A stretch of DNA of 64,000 bases from Verrucomicrobiota bacterium (GTDB lineage Bacteria; Verrucomicrobiota; Verrucomicrobiia; Limisphaerales; J093), in contig JAKLFY010000013.1 in the NCBI GenBank assembly GCA_022710935.1, forward strand, positions 1 to 64,000, read 5' to 3'. The position numbers and the translations under genes are program-made. The notes under the pieces were generated by a model that saw only the letters and a list, made by a program, of their open reading frames with translations, ran no database searches and had not been told where the DNA came from. Below, piece by piece: positions 1 through 42,034 of this stretch (position 1 is the stretch's first letter; every line of letters begins with the position of its first letter).

Positions 1-225
1 CTTGGAGGGGCAAGCGTGCAGCCATTCGGAATGACCTATAGAATATCTATAGCTCATTGTCAACAGAAAACCTGCGCCCACACACACTTTTTTCACCTTT
101 CCAGAAAATTAGGCGAGGATCAGGGAAGCACAATTCTAAGGACTATCCTCCCGCGAATTGCGCCAGAAGTTTTGTTACACCGAGGGGAATCACCGGGCCT
201 GTCGTGGCGCGGTTGTTGCGTCTAA
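1..225. other. 5' intergenic sequence, no gene recognised
   Basis: The first 225 bases are less GC-rich than the rest of the window. They contain only short overlapping frames with no recognisable product, and no convincing promoter, RNA or repeat. They may be the downstream flank of a gene lying before the window. Confidence 0.4.
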
Positions 226-36152: not shown

Positions 36153-36830
36153 ATGGACCAAGCCACCCACAACAAGATCGTCTCCTTCATCTGGGGCATC
36201 GCCGACGATGTGCTGCGCGACCTGTTCAAGCGCGGCAAATACCCCGACGTCATCCTGCCCATGTGCGTCTTGCGCCGGATGGACGCCGTGCTCGAGCCGA
36301 CCAAGCAGGCCGTGCTGGAAACGAAGGAGATGCTCGACAAGGCGGGCATCACCGAGCAGCGCGCCGCGCTCGCCGCTGCTGCCGGCCAGTCCTTTTACAA
36401 CACCTCGAAATTCACCCTGCGCGACTTGAAGTCCCGGGGCAGCCAGCAGCAGCTCCTCGCCGATTTTGAAAATTACCTGGACGGATTCTCCCAAAATGTT
36501 CAGGACATCCTCGAGAACTTCAAATTCCGCAACCAGCTCCCAACCCTCTCGAAGTCCGATTCCCTCGGCACGCTCATCAACAAGTTCCTCGATCCAGAGA
36601 TCAATCTCAGCCCGGATCCCGTCCTCCATTCCGACGGCACGATCCGCCAGCCCGCGATGGACAATCACGCCATGGGCACCGTCTTCGAGGAACTGGTCCG
36701 CAAATTCAACGAGGACAACAACGAAGAGGCCGGCGAACACTGGACGCCCCGCGACGCCGTGCGCCTGATGGCGAATCTGATTTTCCTTCCCGTCGCTGAC
36801 CGCATCAAATCCGGCGCTTACCTGCCGTAG
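36153..36830 (+). pseudogene. hsdM: Truncated type I restriction methylase subunit HsdM
   Basis: The ATG at 36153 gives the standard family start MDQATHNKIVSFIWGIADDV, followed by RGKYPDVILPMCVLRRMDAV, and FNEDNNEEAGEHWTPRDAVR just before the end. It stops with TAG at 36828-36830 after ADRIKSGAYLP, exactly where intact HsdM proteins continue into the SAM-binding YDGACGTGG motif and the NPPF catalytic loop. Only the N-terminal 225 residues of what is normally a protein two to three times longer remain. The methylase is expected to be inactive. The fic gene follows after about 120 bases. Confidence 0.88.
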
Positions 36831-36953: not shown

Positions 36954-38063
36954 ATGAAGCCATTTGAGCCAGAACCCCTTCCGCCCAGTGATCTCGAACT
37001 GCTTGCGCTCATGCCGTTGATCGGCAAGGCGAATCGGGCCATCGCCACCCTGGAAGGGCTCTTCTACGGCATCCCCAACCCCAATGTTCTGCTCTCGCCC
37101 ATCACGACGCAGGAAGCCGTGCTCTCCTCCAAGATCGAAGGTACTCAGGCTGATTTGGAGGACGTTCTGAAATTCGAAGCGGGCGAACCACCGTCCGAGC
37201 CATCCCGCCGGGACGACATCCACGAAATCATGAACTACCGGAAGGCCCTCCGTCTTTCCGAGAAGCTCCTCCAAGACCGCCCGTTCTGCCTGAACACTCT
37301 GCTCAAGCTTCATGACGTCCTCATGGACAGCGTCCGTGGCCACAACAAGGCGCGCGGACGCTTCCGCACGATTCAGAATTGGATCGGCAAGCCGGGCAGC
37401 CCGATTGAGGAAGCCGCCTTCGTTCCACCATCGCCGTTCCACCTGCAGGAGCACCTGAACCGTTGGGAAGCCTATTGGCATGCAGACGCACCAGACGCCC
37501 TGGTTCAACTCGCCCTCGTTCATGCGCAATTCGAGATTCTCCACCCGTTTATTGATGGCAACGGCCGCCTCGGGCGCATGATTATCCCGCTCTTCCTCTA
37601 CGAGAAGAAGATTCTGAGCCGGCCCTGCTTCTACCTATCGGCCTACTTTGAATCCAGCCGCGACAACTACATCGCCCGACTCAGAGATCTGGGCCAGCCC
37701 GGAAGCTGGACGCGCTGGTGTGCATTCTTTGTCGAGGGCGTGGCCGTGCAGGCCGAGGCGAACACCACCAAGGCCCGCGCCATTCAGGACCTGTACGAGC
37801 GCCTCAAGAAGAAAGTCATCGACCTGACGCACTCGCAGTTTGCCATACCGCTGCTCGACTTCATCTTCGAGCGGCCGATCTTCCGCAGCAGCGATGTCAC
37901 CAAGCTGGCGCACATGCCCAGCGCGCCCATGGTGGCCAATCTGCTTGGCAACCTCAGGCGGAACGGCGTGCTTCACACCGTGCGCGAAGGCGCCGGACGC
38001 CGCCCGCACGTGCTGGCGCTCGCCGAACTCATCAACCTCTGCGAGGGGAAGAAAGTGTTTTGA
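36954..38063 (+). CDS. Fic family protein (predicted AMP transferase)
   Basis: Fic enzymes usually transfer AMP from ATP to Ser, Thr or Tyr hydroxyls of target proteins. The 369-residue protein has an N-terminal Fic_N-type region, with the inhibitory helix motif SSKIEG (Ser58 to Gly63, S-x-x-x-E-G). The catalytic motif is complete: HPFIDGNGRLGR, with His197 as catalytic base and Asp201, Asn203 and Arg205 as other motif residues. A winged-helix-like region follows at the C-terminus (RPIFRSSDVTKLAHMPSA). The inhibitory motif in front of the core makes it a class II (N-terminally self-inhibited) Fic. It lies between truncated hsdM and full-length hsdS. The 36831-36953 spacer has inverted GTTAAAC/GTTTAAC copies at 36854-36860 and 36932-36938, a possible operator. 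Confidence 0.92.
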   Translation: MKPFEPEPLPPSDLELLALMPLIGKANRAIATLEGLFYGIPNPNVLLSPITTQEAVLSSKIEGTQADLEDVLKFEAGEPPSEPSRRDDIHEIMNYRKALRLSEKLLQDRPFCLNTLLKLHDVLMDSVRGHNKARGRFRTIQNWIGKPGSPIEEAAFVPPSPFHLQEHLNRWEAYWHADAPDALVQLALVHAQFEILHPFIDGNGRLGRMIIPLFLYEKKILSRPCFYLSAYFESSRDNYIARLRDLGQPGSWTRWCAFFVEGVAVQAEANTTKARAIQDLYERLKKKVIDLTHSQFAIPLLDFIFERPIFRSSDVTKLAHMPSAPMVANLLGNLRRNGVLHTVREGAGRRPHVLALAELINLCEGKKVF

Positions 38064-38190: not shown

Positions 38191-39546
38191 ATGATCGCCA
38201 ACCCTTCGACTCCGCTCATGGCAGGCCTCCAGCCTTACCCGGAATACAAGGAGTCGGGCCTGCCGTGGTCTGCACAGCTTCCCTCGCACTGGAAACAGGA
38301 GCGTGCGAAATGGCTGTTCACTAAGATGGATCGCCCAGTTGGGGAGAATGATGAGGTCGTAACGTGCTTCCGCGACGGCAAGGTGACATTGCGGAAGAAT
38401 CGCCGCTCACGCGGATTCACCGAAGCCATTTACGAGTTCGGCTACCAAGGCATCCGCAAGGGCGACCTCGTGATTCATGCGATGGACGCATTCGCTGGTG
38501 CGGTGGGCGTGTCCGACAGCAACGGCAAGGGCACTCCGGTTTACGCAGTCTGCCAACCGAAGACGGGCGTTAACGCCCACTACTACGCCTTCATCATACG
38601 TGAGATGGCACGGTCGCAGTGGATTCTCGCTCTTTCTCGTGGCATCCGTGAACGTTCGACCGATTTTCGCTACGACACTTTCGGCGGACAGCGTGTGCCA
38701 TTGCCCCCTCCCTCGGAGCAGGCGGCGATGGTGCGGTTTCTGGACTGGGCGAACGGGCGGCTGGAGCGGGCGATCCGGGCGAAGCGAAAGGTGATCGCGC
38801 TGCTCCACGAGCAGAAGCAGGCCATCATCCACCGGGCCGTCACCCGAGGTTTGAACGCGGAGGCCGCGTTCAAACCTTCCGGCATCCCCTGGCTCGGCAA
38901 CATCCCCGAGCATTGGGAAGTGTGGCCGTTACGCCGGTGCATTTCCATCCGGTCTGGCGATTTCATCGATGGATCGAAGCTCAAGAATGAGAGAAGCGAC
39001 TCAAGCCCGATCCCCGTGATAGGTGGGAATGGCATCATGGGATTTGCCGATCGGTCAAACGTTTCCGGGCTGACCATCGTGATCGGGCGAGTGGGTGCTC
39101 TTTGCGGAAATGTTCATCTGGTTAAAGAGGCTGCGTGGATTACTGACAATGCTTTGAGGATTACCCGGATGGTAGGCTTTGACGCTGGTTACCTGGCCGA
39201 GCAGCTCCGCGTCATGAATCTGAACCTGCTCGCCAATGCCAACGCGCAACCGCTGGTCACCGGGGGTGTAATCAAAACGCAACGCGTCGTAAAGCCCCCA
39301 CAAGATGAGCAGCAAAGAATCACCGATGCATTGCAGACGCTATACGTTCCAGTGACAAGCGCCCTCTCCCGTCTTGATCGCGAAATCGGATTGCTGCGGG
39401 AATACCGGACGCGGCTGGTGGCGGACGTGGTGACGGGCAAGCTGGACGTGCGTCCCGCCGCCCGCGACCTCCCCGCCGAACCCCGCGCCCCCGAACTCGC
39501 GCCGGAGGAATCGTCCGAACCCGAAACCGAGGAAACCGAAGCATGA
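38191..39546 (+). CDS. hsdS: Type I restriction specificity subunit HsdS
   Basis: HsdS gives the DNA sequence specificity of type I restriction-modification complexes. The ATG at 38191 has GGAGG at 38180-38184 and gives 451 residues, a full-length protein. Two target-recognition domains are each opened by a GLPW/GIPWLG-type motif (KESGLPWSAQLPSHWK and SGIPWLGNIPEHWEVW) and closed by a conserved helix: LLHEQKQAIIHRAVTRGL in the middle and LLREYRTRLVADVVTGKL at the end. The C-terminal tail is Pro/Glu-rich (EPETEETEA). Its partners hsdM and hsdR are both truncated here, so it has no local functional complex. It ends in ATGA overlap with the next small frame. Confidence 0.92.
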   Translation: MIANPSTPLMAGLQPYPEYKESGLPWSAQLPSHWKQERAKWLFTKMDRPVGENDEVVTCFRDGKVTLRKNRRSRGFTEAIYEFGYQGIRKGDLVIHAMDAFAGAVGVSDSNGKGTPVYAVCQPKTGVNAHYYAFIIREMARSQWILALSRGIRERSTDFRYDTFGGQRVPLPPPSEQAAMVRFLDWANGRLERAIRAKRKVIALLHEQKQAIIHRAVTRGLNAEAAFKPSGIPWLGNIPEHWEVWPLRRCISIRSGDFIDGSKLKNERSDSSPIPVIGGNGIMGFADRSNVSGLTIVIGRVGALCGNVHLVKEAAWITDNALRITRMVGFDAGYLAEQLRVMNLNLLANANAQPLVTGGVIKTQRVVKPPQDEQQRITDALQTLYVPVTSALSRLDREIGLLREYRTRLVADVVTGKLDVRPAARDLPAEPRAPELAPEESSEPETEETEA

Positions 39547-39890: not shown

Positions 39891-39909
39891 ACTTCCCCAA
39901 ATGGGAAGT
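39891..39909 (+). promoter_or_regulatory. Candidate operator dyad before higB
   Basis: A perfect 7-bp inverted repeat ACTTCCC (39891-39897) and GGGAAGT (39903-39909) with a 5-nt CAAAT centre lies just before a TTGACA hexamer at 39916-39921 and about 35 bases before the higB start. Its position suits autoregulation by the HTH-containing antitoxin. Confidence 0.45.
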
Positions 39910-39944
39910 GTTTGATTGACATACAGACGGGAACTTCTTACCGT

Positions 39945-40238
39945 ATGCGGGTTATTAAAATCAAGACCCTGCTCGAGTTCTGGCAGCGGGAACCGGCGGC
40001 GCAAGCGGAATTGCAGGCATGGTATGCGGAAGCGAAGGAAGCCGATTGGCAAACACCCGCTGAACTCAAGATGCAGTTCGGCAATGCCAGCATTCTCAAA
40101 GGGCAGCGCGTGGTGTTCAATATTTGCGGAAACAAGTACCGGCTGGTCGTACGGATTAACTATCCGTTTCGCGTGATTTACATCCGGTTCATCGGCACGC
40201 ACGCGGAATACGACCGCATTGACGTGGAAACAGTGTGA
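39945..40238 (+). CDS. higB: HigB family toxin (mRNA interferase)
   Basis: The 97-residue product matches the HigB_toxin family: MRVIKIKTLLEFW, AELQAWYAEAKEADWQTPAE, GQRVVFNICGNKYRLVVRIN and YPFRVIYIRFIGTHAEYDRI. These small RelE-fold endoribonucleases cleave mRNA at the ribosome. The ATG at 39945 is preferred over an upstream TTG (39912) because the family starts MRVI. The gene precedes the antitoxin, the reverse of the usual antitoxin-first order but typical of hig loci, and its TGA overlaps the next ATG by one base (TGATG). Confidence 0.92.
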   Translation: MRVIKIKTLLEFWQREPAAQAELQAWYAEAKEADWQTPAELKMQFGNASILKGQRVVFNICGNKYRLVVRINYPFRVIYIRFIGTHAEYDRIDVETV

Positions 40239-41443
40239 TGCAACCGAAACTCATCAAAACCGAGGCCGACCACCAGGCCGCGCTGGCGCGTATCGAAGCC
40301 ATCTTCGATGCGGCTCCGGGCACGCCTGAAGGCGACGAGTTCGAACTGCTGACGACGTTGGTGGAGCTCTACGAGAAGGAGCATTTCCCGGTGGGGTTGC
40401 CCGACCCCATCGCTGCCATCCGGTTCCGTATGGAGCAGGGTGGCTTGAAGCAGAAGGACTTGGTCCGCTACATCGGCAGCGAAAGCAAAGTGTCGGAAGT
40501 GCTGTCGGGCCAGCGCGGCTTGAGTCTGTCCATGATACGCAACTTGGTCGGAGGCTTGGGCATCCCGGCGGAAGTCCTGTTGCAGGAGGCGGGTGCGAAG
40601 CTCGATCCGAACGACCCGGCCCTGCAATGGAACAAGTTCCCCCTGGCGGAGATGGTGGAACGAGGCTGGTTCCCCGGCTTTCACGACCGGTTGCCCGACG
40701 CCAAGTCCCAAGCGGAGGACCTGCTGGCGTCCTTCGCGGGCCCATTGGGCCGGGGCGCTCTGCGTCCAGCTCTGAACCGTCAGCACGTCCGTAGCGGCAG
40801 CCAGATGGACCCCTACGCGCTAGCCGCATGGCGCATCCGTGTCGCCACCCTCGCGCTCCGCCAAGCCTTGCCGCCCTACCAGCCGGGAACCATCACTCCC
40901 CGGTTCATGCGGGAATTGGTTCAGCTCAGCTACATGGATGAAGGCCCGCGGCTGGCCAAGGAGTTTCTCGGCAAAAGCGGCATTCGCTTTGCCGTCGAGC
41001 GCCACTTGCCCCACACGTTTCTGGATGGCGCGGCCATGAAGCTCCCGGACGGCTCGCCCGTCGTCGGCCTGACGCTGCGCTACGACCGTCTCGACAATTT
41101 CTGGTTTACGCTCTGCCACGAGCTTGCGCACATCGCTCTGCACCTGGACAAGGGAGAGGTGGATGTGTTTTTCGATGACGTGGCGCAGCGGGATCCAGAC
41201 ACGCGGGAGAAGGAGGCCGATGGGTTTGCCAGCGAAGCGCTCATCCCCGCCAAGGAATGGAAGGAGTTTCGCCTCAGTCACACACTCGACTCGGCCAGCG
41301 TGCGAGCGTTCGCGGCTCGCCTCCGAATCAGCTCGGCCATACCCGCCGGTCGCATCCGCTACGAGAAAGGCAGTTACAAGTTGCTCCAAGACCTTGTCGG
41401 CCGAGGGAAGGTCCGCAAGTTGCTGGAGCCAGCCACAGTCTGA
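40238..41443 (+). CDS. HigA-like antitoxin fused to ImmA/IrrE metallopeptidase
   Basis: The 401-residue product has two parts. The N-terminal 110 or so residues match HigA antitoxins: RIEAIFDAAPGTPEGDEFEL, LYEKEHFPVGLPDPIAAIRF and the XRE-like helix-turn-helix LKQKDLVRYIGSESKVSEVL. The C-terminal 250 residues match the ImmA/IrrE metallopeptidase family, with the zinc motif LCHELAHIALHL (His294, Glu295, His298) and downstream EKEADGFASEALIP providing the third ligand. ImmA/IrrE proteases typically cleave a repressor after a signal. The fusion therefore couples toxin neutralisation, DNA binding and a protease in one chain. It is translationally coupled to higB, and hsdR' follows after nine bases. 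Confidence 0.88.
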   Translation: MQPKLIKTEADHQAALARIEAIFDAAPGTPEGDEFELLTTLVELYEKEHFPVGLPDPIAAIRFRMEQGGLKQKDLVRYIGSESKVSEVLSGQRGLSLSMIRNLVGGLGIPAEVLLQEAGAKLDPNDPALQWNKFPLAEMVERGWFPGFHDRLPDAKSQAEDLLASFAGPLGRGALRPALNRQHVRSGSQMDPYALAAWRIRVATLALRQALPPYQPGTITPRFMRELVQLSYMDEGPRLAKEFLGKSGIRFAVERHLPHTFLDGAAMKLPDGSPVVGLTLRYDRLDNFWFTLCHELAHIALHLDKGEVDVFFDDVAQRDPDTREKEADGFASEALIPAKEWKEFRLSHTLDSASVRAFAARLRISSAIPAGRIRYEKGSYKLLQDLVGRGKVRKLLEPATV

Positions 41444-41452
41444 GGTCATTTC

Positions 41453-42034
41453 ATGCCCCCAACGGACACCAGCGAGAAGGGCCTCGAGACGCTGATCATG
41501 CGGCACATGACCGGCGTGGATGGGCTGGTGTTCGCCGCCGAGGATGTTGTCGCGGAAACGCCCGATGCCCTCGCCGCCGCCAAGGCCGCCGGCTCGGGCT
41601 GGCTCGCCGGCAACCCCAAAGACTACGACCGCACCCACGCGCTCGACGTGCCGCAGTTGTTCCAGTTCCTGCAGGCCACCCAGCCAGAGACCTTCAAGAA
41701 GCTCGGCATGCCCGATTACCGTGATGCCAAGGACATCAACCGCCAAAAGTTCCTCGCCCGGCTCTCGAATGAAATCGGCAAGCGCGGCGTGATTGACGTG
41801 CTCCGCAAGGGCGTGGACCACGGCCCGCTGCATTTCGACCTGTTCTACGGCACGCCCTCACCGGGCAACACCAAGGCGGCGACGCTCCATGCCCGGAATC
41901 GTTTCAGCGTCACCCGCCAGTTGCGCTATAGCACGGACGAGACCCGCCGGGCGCTGGACTTGTGCCTGTTCATCAACGGCCTGCCGCTATCGACCTTTGA
42001 ACTCAAGTATGGTCTTCACCATCACAGCCGGTGA
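41453..42034 (+). pseudogene. hsdR: Truncated type I restriction endonuclease subunit HsdR
   Basis: The frame encodes 193 residues that correspond to the N-terminus of HsdR (MPPTDTSEKGLETLIMRHMT, FNGLPL-like LCLFINGLPLSTFELKYG). The nuclease-type E-x-K (FELK) is near the end, then the sequence runs into HHHSR and stops. The rest of the nuclease domain and the whole SF2 helicase motor, normally about 800 residues more, are missing. It is a dead restriction subunit. The break lies just upstream of an unrelated exported protein at 42105. Confidence 0.88.

What the first reader, a model, noticed from the sequence alone, without database searches (positions are those of the whole stretch)
39891..41443. 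HigB toxin paired with a HigA-ImmA/IrrE fusion and an operator dyad
HigB is followed, with TGATG overlap, by a 401-residue protein that joins a HigA-like HTH antitoxin to an ImmA/IrrE protease with LCHELAHIALHL. A perfect 7-bp dyad with TTGACA next to it lies upstream. Self-cleavage or cleavage of the antitoxin domain by its own protease after a signal would be a direct switch to toxin release. I know related fusions are annotated but not that this mode has been shown.
Basis: partly seen in the sequence, partly recalled or inferred. Interest (0 to 1): 0.7.

Follow-up and report, generated by a model that had tools for sequence, protein, structure and literature searches.

The report
HigB toxin with protease-fused antitoxin
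This is a two-gene bacterial toxin-antitoxin module whose antitoxin carries its own protease; it is a two-gene relative of the known phage-defence system PD-lambda-2, sits in the wreck of a restriction-modification operon, and has an operator conserved across many phyla, but whether the protease acts as the release switch remains untested.

Summary
higB (39945-40238) overlaps, in TGATG, a 401-residue HigA-peptidase fusion (40238-41443); a perfect 7-bp dyad lies at 39891-39909 beside TTGACA. Both proteins match, nearly full length, components A and B of PD-lambda-2, a known E. coli abortive-infection system; the third component, needed for defence there, is missing here and beside its relatives. 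HigB lies immediately upstream in 48 of 50 related loci. The zinc site (H294, E295, H298, E324) is invariant in 48 of 48 fusions. The operator (GTTCCC-N5-GGGAAC) recurs across phyla (37 of 47 loci, 0.5 expected), usually with a third half-site inside the promoter that unfused higBA loci lack (30/37 against 1/17). In six genomes, this one included, the pair lies between hsdS and hsdR of a type I restriction operon; here hsdM and hsdR are truncated while the pair is intact. Against it, overexpressed PD-lambda-2 B was itself toxic and HigB-like A rescued it, so toxin and antitoxin roles are unsettled. New variant of a known kind; moderate interest.

The parts
39891..39909 (.). Operator dyad ACTTCCC-CAAAT-GGGAAGT (consensus over relatives GTTCCC-N5-GGGAAC)
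   Evidence: <=2 mismatches in 37 of 47 fused loci vs 0.52 expected; also 17 of 24 unfused loci vs 0.25
39916..39921 (+). TTGACA, -35-like box between dyad and third half-site
   Evidence: not called by the generic promoter scan in the window, the hexamer 17 nt further (TACCGT) being weak; visible with a good -10 in several relatives
39929..39934 (+). Third half-site GGGAAC inside the promoter spacer
   Evidence: present in 30 of 37 fused loci with a dyad, 1 of 17 unfused; at +18..23 in 26 of 37 vs 0.5 expected
39945..40238 (+). higB, 97-aa HigB_toxin (PF09907); PD-Lambda-2_A
   Evidence: PF09907 E 5.5e-33; PDLC03979 E 4e-43 over 97/97; E. coli HigB (5ifg) E 1.4e-5
40238..41443 (+). HigA-peptidase fusion, 401 aa; PD-Lambda-2_B
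   Evidence: PDLC03982 E 2e-141 over 397 of 402 positions; AlphaFold pLDDT 86.8, pTM 0.69
40238..40585 (+). HigA-like antitoxin/HTH part, residues 1-116
   Evidence: E. coli HigA in HigBA complex 6kmq_B, Z 9.2, rmsd 4.5, 108 aligned, 32% id; unfused HigA relatives up to 70% identical
40892..41410 (+). ImmA/IrrE (M78) peptidase part, residues 219-391
   Evidence: PF06114 E 7e-11; CapP 7t5t Z 9.3, rmsd 5.3, 157 aligned, 18% id; IrrE 3dte Z 6.9
41117..41131 (+). HELAH zinc motif, residues 294-298
   Evidence: H294, E295, H298 in 48 of 48 relatives
41207..41209 (+). Glu324, presumed third zinc ligand (EKEADGFA)
   Evidence: E in 48 of 48; ligand role inferred from knowledge of IrrE
38215..39546 (+). 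hsdS, type I specificity subunit upstream of the pair (start approximate)
   Evidence: Specificity_I E 1e-72; 34% id to HsdS of L036 over 443 aa
36153..36830 (+). hsdM remnant: first 232 of ~780 residues, then a stop
   Evidence: 83% id to HsdM of L036, residues 1-232
41453..42034 (+). hsdR remnant: first ~187 of ~1002 residues
   Evidence: 68% id to HsdR of L075, residues 2-187

Best explanation
A toxin-antitoxin-protease module, the two-gene core (A+B) of the PD-lambda-2 type without gene C, acting as an abortive-infection or stress switch. Step 1 (conserved features shown, function inferred): HigB is a BECR-fold, ribosome-dependent mRNA interferase. Step 2 (inferred from HigBA complexes and unfused relatives): residues 1-116 of the fusion bind and silence HigB. 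Step 3 (operator shown by footprint, binding inferred): dimers of the fusion, with or without HigB, bind the dyad and the third half-site around the -35 box and repress their own operon. Step 4 (active site shown, activity inferred): the C-terminal M78 peptidase is latent and becomes active on a signal, possibly single-stranded DNA as for CapP and PprI. Step 5 (speculative): it cleaves the HigA part or the linker, in cis or on the partner protomer, so repression is lost and HigB is freed. The type I restriction operon is a landing site for the module, not a requirement.
For: Full-length PADLOC A and B matches; HigB adjacent in 48 of 50 loci; zinc site invariant 48/48 and HigB residues W26, K42, R66, H86, Y89 in 44-46 of 46; N-terminal fold HigA and C-terminal fold CapP, then IrrE; operator footprint shared by fused and unfused systems, which argues that the HigA part still works as a HigA; unfused HigA-HigB pairs up to 70% identical in that part suggest it is enough for an antitoxin; in the related Rosmer systems the Xre-ImmA protein is the antitoxin; ssDNA activates PprI and CapP to cut HTH repressors.
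Against: PD-lambda-2 B alone was toxic and A rescued it, the reverse of steps 1-2 for that homologue. Gene C, needed for defence in PD-lambda-2, is absent next to this pair. No cleavage site can be named from sequence; CapP/CapH and IrrE/DdrO act in trans on a separate repressor. The ssDNA-sensing GAF-like domain of PprI was not identified in the fusion. No in vivo or in vitro data exist for this family member.
Confidence: 0.5

Rival explanations
1. Reversed roles: the fusion (its peptidase, or its HTH acting as a misregulator) is the toxic partner and the HigB-like protein restrains it by binding the HigA part; activation frees the fusion, whose protease attacks a host or phage protein.
For: Overexpressed PD-lambda-2 B was toxic and A rescued it; Makarova 2009 lists COG2856 as a predicted toxin; the active site is invariant.
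Against: HigB keeps the residues conserved with E. coli HigB, which a mere inhibitor would not need; unfused relatives pair the same HigB with HigA alone; in Rosmer systems the Xre-ImmA protein is the antitoxin. The PD-lambda-2 result is overexpression of one E. coli homologue with an additional gene C.
Confidence: 0.25
2. A HigBA addiction module in which the peptidase only tunes turnover of the fusion or cleaves another Xre repressor; no signal-coupled switch and no defence role.
For: Patchy distribution over phyla and plasmids; pair kept intact where hsdM and hsdR are broken; unfused HigBA works without a peptidase.
Against: Complete conservation of the zinc site and of R281, D286, F288-F290; match to an experimentally selected defence system.
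Confidence: 0.15
3. Restriction guardian: like PrrC in EcoprrI, the module is held silent by the type I enzyme and released when a phage anti-restriction protein disables it.
For: Pair lies between hsdS and hsdR in six genomes of three phyla, in at least two lineages; Xre-M78 genes with PIN-like partners occupy the same slot in two other operons (2 seen, 0.029 expected); DarTG2 uses the slot in E. coli; guardian systems exist.
Against: Most relatives (44 of 50) are not in a restriction operon; in this window the pair is intact although hsdM and hsdR are broken, so silence cannot depend on the enzyme; the slot is already described as a defence hotspot and holds unrelated cargo. Fused vs unfused contrast 6/30 vs 0/29 (p 0.024) weakens to 6/50 vs 0/29 with all loci (one-sided p about 0.06, own arithmetic).
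Confidence: 0.1

Closest known systems
PD-lambda-2 (Vassallo et al. 2022, PMC9519451)
   Same: Gene A HigB-like, gene B HigA-like Xre part fused to a C-terminal peptidase; both PADLOC models match nearly full length.
   Different: Gene C (P4 antitoxin/beta-like), required for defence there, is absent here and in 29 of 30 genomes with the pair; in the remaining genome it is 36 kb away beside another Xre-peptidase gene. Role assignment measured there (B toxic, A rescues) not tested here.
Makarova 2009 COG2856-Xre fusions with RelE or PIN toxins (PMC2701414)
   Same: Same architecture and the same proposed mechanism (protease cuts an Xre antitoxin/repressor).
   Different: Prediction for a broad class; no HigB-specific operator or restriction-operon context.
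RosmerTA / RipAB (PMC10440598, PMC12795458)
   Same: Xre plus ImmA antitoxin next to a toxin; phage defence; HTH cleavage suggested.
   Different: Toxins are other families (membrane depolariser, DnaN-targeting); sequence match only in the peptidase.
E. coli HigBA (YgjNM)
   Same: HigB and HigA parts homologous, top fold match of residues 5-116.
   Different: Its HigA carries no peptidase.
CapP/CapH of CBASS and IrrE(PprI)/DdrO
   Same: Closest solved peptidase folds; cut HTH repressors after DNA damage, ssDNA-activated.
   Different: Protease and repressor are separate proteins; no toxin partner of HigB type.
DarTG2 embedded in a type I restriction operon; PrrC in EcoprrI (PMC12255303, PMC3874165)
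   Same: DarTG2 occupies the same hsdS-hsdR slot; PrrC is embedded in the restriction operon.
   Different: Unrelated toxins; here the restriction genes are broken.

Membership tests
PD-lambda-2 | HigB-like A component | tested here: met
   PDLC03979 E 4e-43 over 97/97
PD-lambda-2 | HigA-like/peptidase fusion B | tested here: met
   PDLC03982 E 2e-141, 1-397 of 402
PD-lambda-2 | C component (P4 antitoxin/beta-like) in the same operon | tested here: not met
   PDLC03983 has no match in the genome at E<=0.001; next gene downstream is an hsdR remnant. Hence filed as a two-gene variant, not as PD-lambda-2
PD-lambda-2 | protection against lambda-vir, abortive | not testable with these tools
   needs plaque assays
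HigB toxin (PF09907) | family profile and conserved residues | tested here: met
   E 5.5e-33; W26, R66, G84, H86, Y89 in 45-46 of 46
HigB toxin (PF09907) | ribosome-dependent mRNA cleavage | not testable with these tools
   stated for the family in PMC11980606
HigA antitoxin | HigA fold and partner HigB in one operon | tested here: met
   6kmq_B Z 9.2, 108 aligned, rmsd 4.5; overlap with higB
HigA antitoxin | conserved operator at the operon promoter | tested here: met
   footprint; binding itself not tested
Peptidase M78 (ImmA/IrrE) | HExxH plus downstream Glu, M78 profile over cut-off | tested here: met
   42.4 bits vs cut-off 22; sites 48/48
Peptidase M78 (ImmA/IrrE) | proteolysis of an HTH repressor | not testable with these tools
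   no substrate data
RosmerTA | RmrA-type Xre-ImmA protein beside an RmrT toxin | tested here: inconclusive
   RmrA models hit only the peptidase stretch, E 1e-2 to 7e-7; partner is HigB
Restriction guardian (PrrC-like) | embedded in a type I operon | tested here: met
   between hsdS and hsdR here and in five relatives
Restriction guardian (PrrC-like) | silenced by an intact restriction enzyme | tested here: not met
   hsdM and hsdR truncated here, pair intact; inference from sequence only

The most novel reading that the evidence does not exclude
Protease-fused toxin-antitoxin modules (HigB type and PIN type) have entered the hsdS-hsdR slot of type I restriction operons several times as a second line of defence, firing when restriction fails or leaves ssDNA: the peptidase senses DNA damage or ssDNA, cuts its own HigA part, and HigB stops translation. 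The third half-site in the promoter, found almost only with the fused antitoxin, would couple that cut to a burst of toxin synthesis.
Probability: 0.12. Interest if true: 0.75.

Novelty: new variant of a known kind. Interest (0 to 1): 0.4.

Why it matters
Xre-ImmA fusions next to toxins have been predicted to be proteolytic switches since 2009 and turn up in several phage-defence systems, but in the papers found here nobody has shown what the protease cuts or which partner is the real toxin. This two-gene form, without gene C, with a clear operator and closely related unfused HigBA pairs as natural controls, is a clean place to settle both questions. The repeated landing of such modules in type I restriction operons makes a layered-defence role testable.

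Tried and rejected
Looked for PD-lambda-2 C near the pair in 30 genomes: absent; the one hit belongs to another Xre-peptidase gene. E. coli plasmid hit for C (H48): beta protein in a prophage-like region without higB beside it, so no E. coli A-B-C operon was recovered. Considered that the pair is simply a standard HigBA with C-terminal junk: rejected, zinc site 48/48. Considered that the dyad is a chance terminator-like stem: rejected by the cross-species footprint. The claim that fusion systems as a class prefer restriction operons: weak (6/30 vs 0/29 in the first set, but none of 20 further loci). Generic sigma-70 scan gave no promoter in the window. Literature searches for a proven self-cleaving HigA-ImmA found none; the library lacks most subscription papers and bioRxiv. 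A low-confidence, partly conserved loop at residues 176-191 (R181 45/48, R185 41/48) was noted as a possible cut or ligand loop; no evidence beyond that.

Full report
What is there. A dyad ACTTCCC-CAAAT-GGGAAGT lies at 39891-39909, TTGACA at 39916, then GGGAAC at 39929 and the higB ATG at 39945. higB (39945-40238) encodes 97 residues with a full HigB_toxin match (E 5.5e-33) and sequence similarity to E. coli HigB. Its stop overlaps the start of a 401-residue protein (40238-41443) whose residues 50-111 resemble E. coli HigA and residues 281-366 the M78 (ImmA/IrrE) peptidases. H294 is the first histidine of HELAH.

Known relatives. Against PADLOC, HigB matches PD-Lambda-2_A over its whole length (E 4e-43) and the fusion matches PD-Lambda-2_B over 397 of 402 positions (E 2e-141). 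PD-lambda-2 was selected from the E. coli pangenome as an abortive-infection system of three genes: a HigB-like A, a HigA-peptidase fusion B, and C, related to a P4 phage antitoxin. Overexpressed B was toxic, A rescued it, and C was needed for defence against lambda-vir (PMC9519451). The architecture and the idea that the protease cuts an Xre antitoxin or repressor were published as a prediction in 2009 (PMC2701414), and HTH cleavage is again suggested for Rosmer-like systems in PMC10440598. In RipAB, a Rosmer system, the Xre-ImmA protein is the antitoxin (PMC12795458).

Two genes, not three. The C model (PDLC03983) finds nothing in 29 of 30 genomes that hold the pair, this one included. In the thirtieth it lies 36 kb away, directly behind a different Xre-peptidase gene. 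Rhizobial plasmids show peptidase-beta pairs with a non-HigB gene in front. So the common form in environmental bacteria is A+B alone, and the window is a two-gene variant.

Conservation. HigB is immediately upstream in 48 of 50 loci with the fusion, from Verrucomicrobiota, Nitrospirota, Cyanobacteriota, Desulfobacterota, Myxococcota, Actinomycetota, Ignavibacteriota and proteobacterial plasmids. In 48 aligned fusions H294, E295, H298 and E324 never vary, nor do R281, D286 and F288-F290. In HigB, W26, R66, G84, H86 and Y89 hold in 45-46 of 46. Both proteins look functional. The same HigA part also exists unfused (about 128 aa, up to 70% identical) beside HigB, for example in Treponema MAGs; this suggests that the first 116 residues suffice as antitoxin.

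Structure. AlphaFold gives mean pLDDT 86.8, pTM 0.69. Foldseek and VIA-align put residues 5-116 on HigA of the E. coli HigBA complex (6kmq_B: Z 9.2, rmsd 4.5, 108 aligned) and residues 219-391 on CapP (7t5t: Z 9.3, rmsd 5.3, 157 aligned), with IrrE next (3dte: Z 6.9). CapP and PprI (IrrE) cut HTH repressors and are activated by ssDNA (PMC10904395). That gives a candidate signal, by analogy only.

Operator. Upstream of higB the inverted repeat GTTCCC-N5-GGGAAC occurs with at most two mismatches in 37 of 47 fused loci (0.52 expected from shuffles) and in 17 of 24 unfused loci (0.25 expected). The fused loci usually add a third half-site: 30 of 37 against 1 of 17 unfused (Fisher p 1.6e-7), at +18..23 in 26 of 37 against 0.5 expected. 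The samples are not matched for phylogeny. The dyad and third site flank the -35-like box, so a bound fusion should block the promoter. This is the strongest new result here.

Context. The pair stands between hsdS and an hsdR remnant. hsdM stops after 232 of about 780 residues (83% identical to L036) and hsdR after about 187 of 1002 (68% identical to L075). Intact operons with the pair between hsdS and hsdR occur in L036 (Nitrospirota), L075, L077 and L078 (Verrucomicrobiota); in L037 (Cyanobacteriota) the contig ends inside hsdR. On the fusion tree, window, L036, L037, L075 and L077 form a clade (support 100/98); L078 lies elsewhere and belongs to a different restriction family (38% HsdM identity), so the slot was probably entered at least twice. 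The slot also holds Xre-M78 genes followed by a DUF4411 protein (L193) or a PIN-like protein judged by eye (L185); two such genes in about 88 kb of slot against 0.029 expected from genome density (p 4e-4), without correction for defence-island clustering. Other cargo includes a reverse transcriptase, Schlafen/AlbA_2, a deaminase, an AbiEii-like protein, McrBC and Fic. The hsdS-hsdR slot is already described as a defence hotspot with DarTG2 (PMC12255303), and PrrC is the classic restriction-embedded guardian (PMC3874165, PMC12707154).

Mechanism. Best supported: HigB is the RNase toxin, the HigA part the antitoxin and repressor, and the peptidase a latent switch that removes the HigA function on a signal. 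Shown here: gene pair, conserved catalytic sites, operator. Inferred: HigB activity, neutralisation, operator binding, proteolysis. Speculative: self-cleavage and ssDNA as signal. The PD-lambda-2 overexpression data favour the reverse assignment for one homologue and keep that rival at about one in four. A strict restriction-guardian is unlikely for this copy, because the enzyme is broken while the pair is intact.

Verdict. New variant of a known kind, interest about 0.4.

Noticed in passing
36153-36830 and 41453-42034: hsdM and hsdR of the surrounding type I restriction operon are both truncated at their 3' parts (232/780 and ~187/1002 residues) while hsdS, Fic and the higB pair are open; either decay or an assembly fault in a MAG.
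   Followed up: partly
36954-38063: SoFic-like Fic protein (PADLOC SoFic E 1e-104) between the hsdM remnant and hsdS; L190 has a 50% identical Fic between hsdS and hsdR, L037 a distant Fic match between hsdM and hsdS.
   Followed up: partly
39929-39934 and relatives: Third operator half-site inside the promoter spacer is a mark of fused systems (30/37) against unfused (1/17).
   Followed up: yes
39916-39945; L053, L055, L077; Treponema L056-L065: The -10-like hexamer ends 0-5 nt before the higB ATG in several fused loci and 6 nt before it in most Treponema loci, so higB mRNA may be leaderless or start elsewhere. The script skipped the 0-nt cases; these were read by eye.
   Followed up: partly
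L185:3403-5085, L193:5472-7108: Xre-M78 peptidase genes followed by PIN-like genes (DUF4411 in L193) sit directly upstream of hsdR in other type I operons.
   Followed up: partly
L113 (Pseudoalteromonas plasmid pPsKG3_1): higB-fusion pair directly downstream of another restriction cluster (N-6 methylase, S subunit, AAA ATPase, restriction endonuclease).
   Followed up: no
L075:9409-10527: 373-aa protein with a weak DUF4062 match between hsdM and hsdS of the intact sister operon; function unknown.
   Followed up: no
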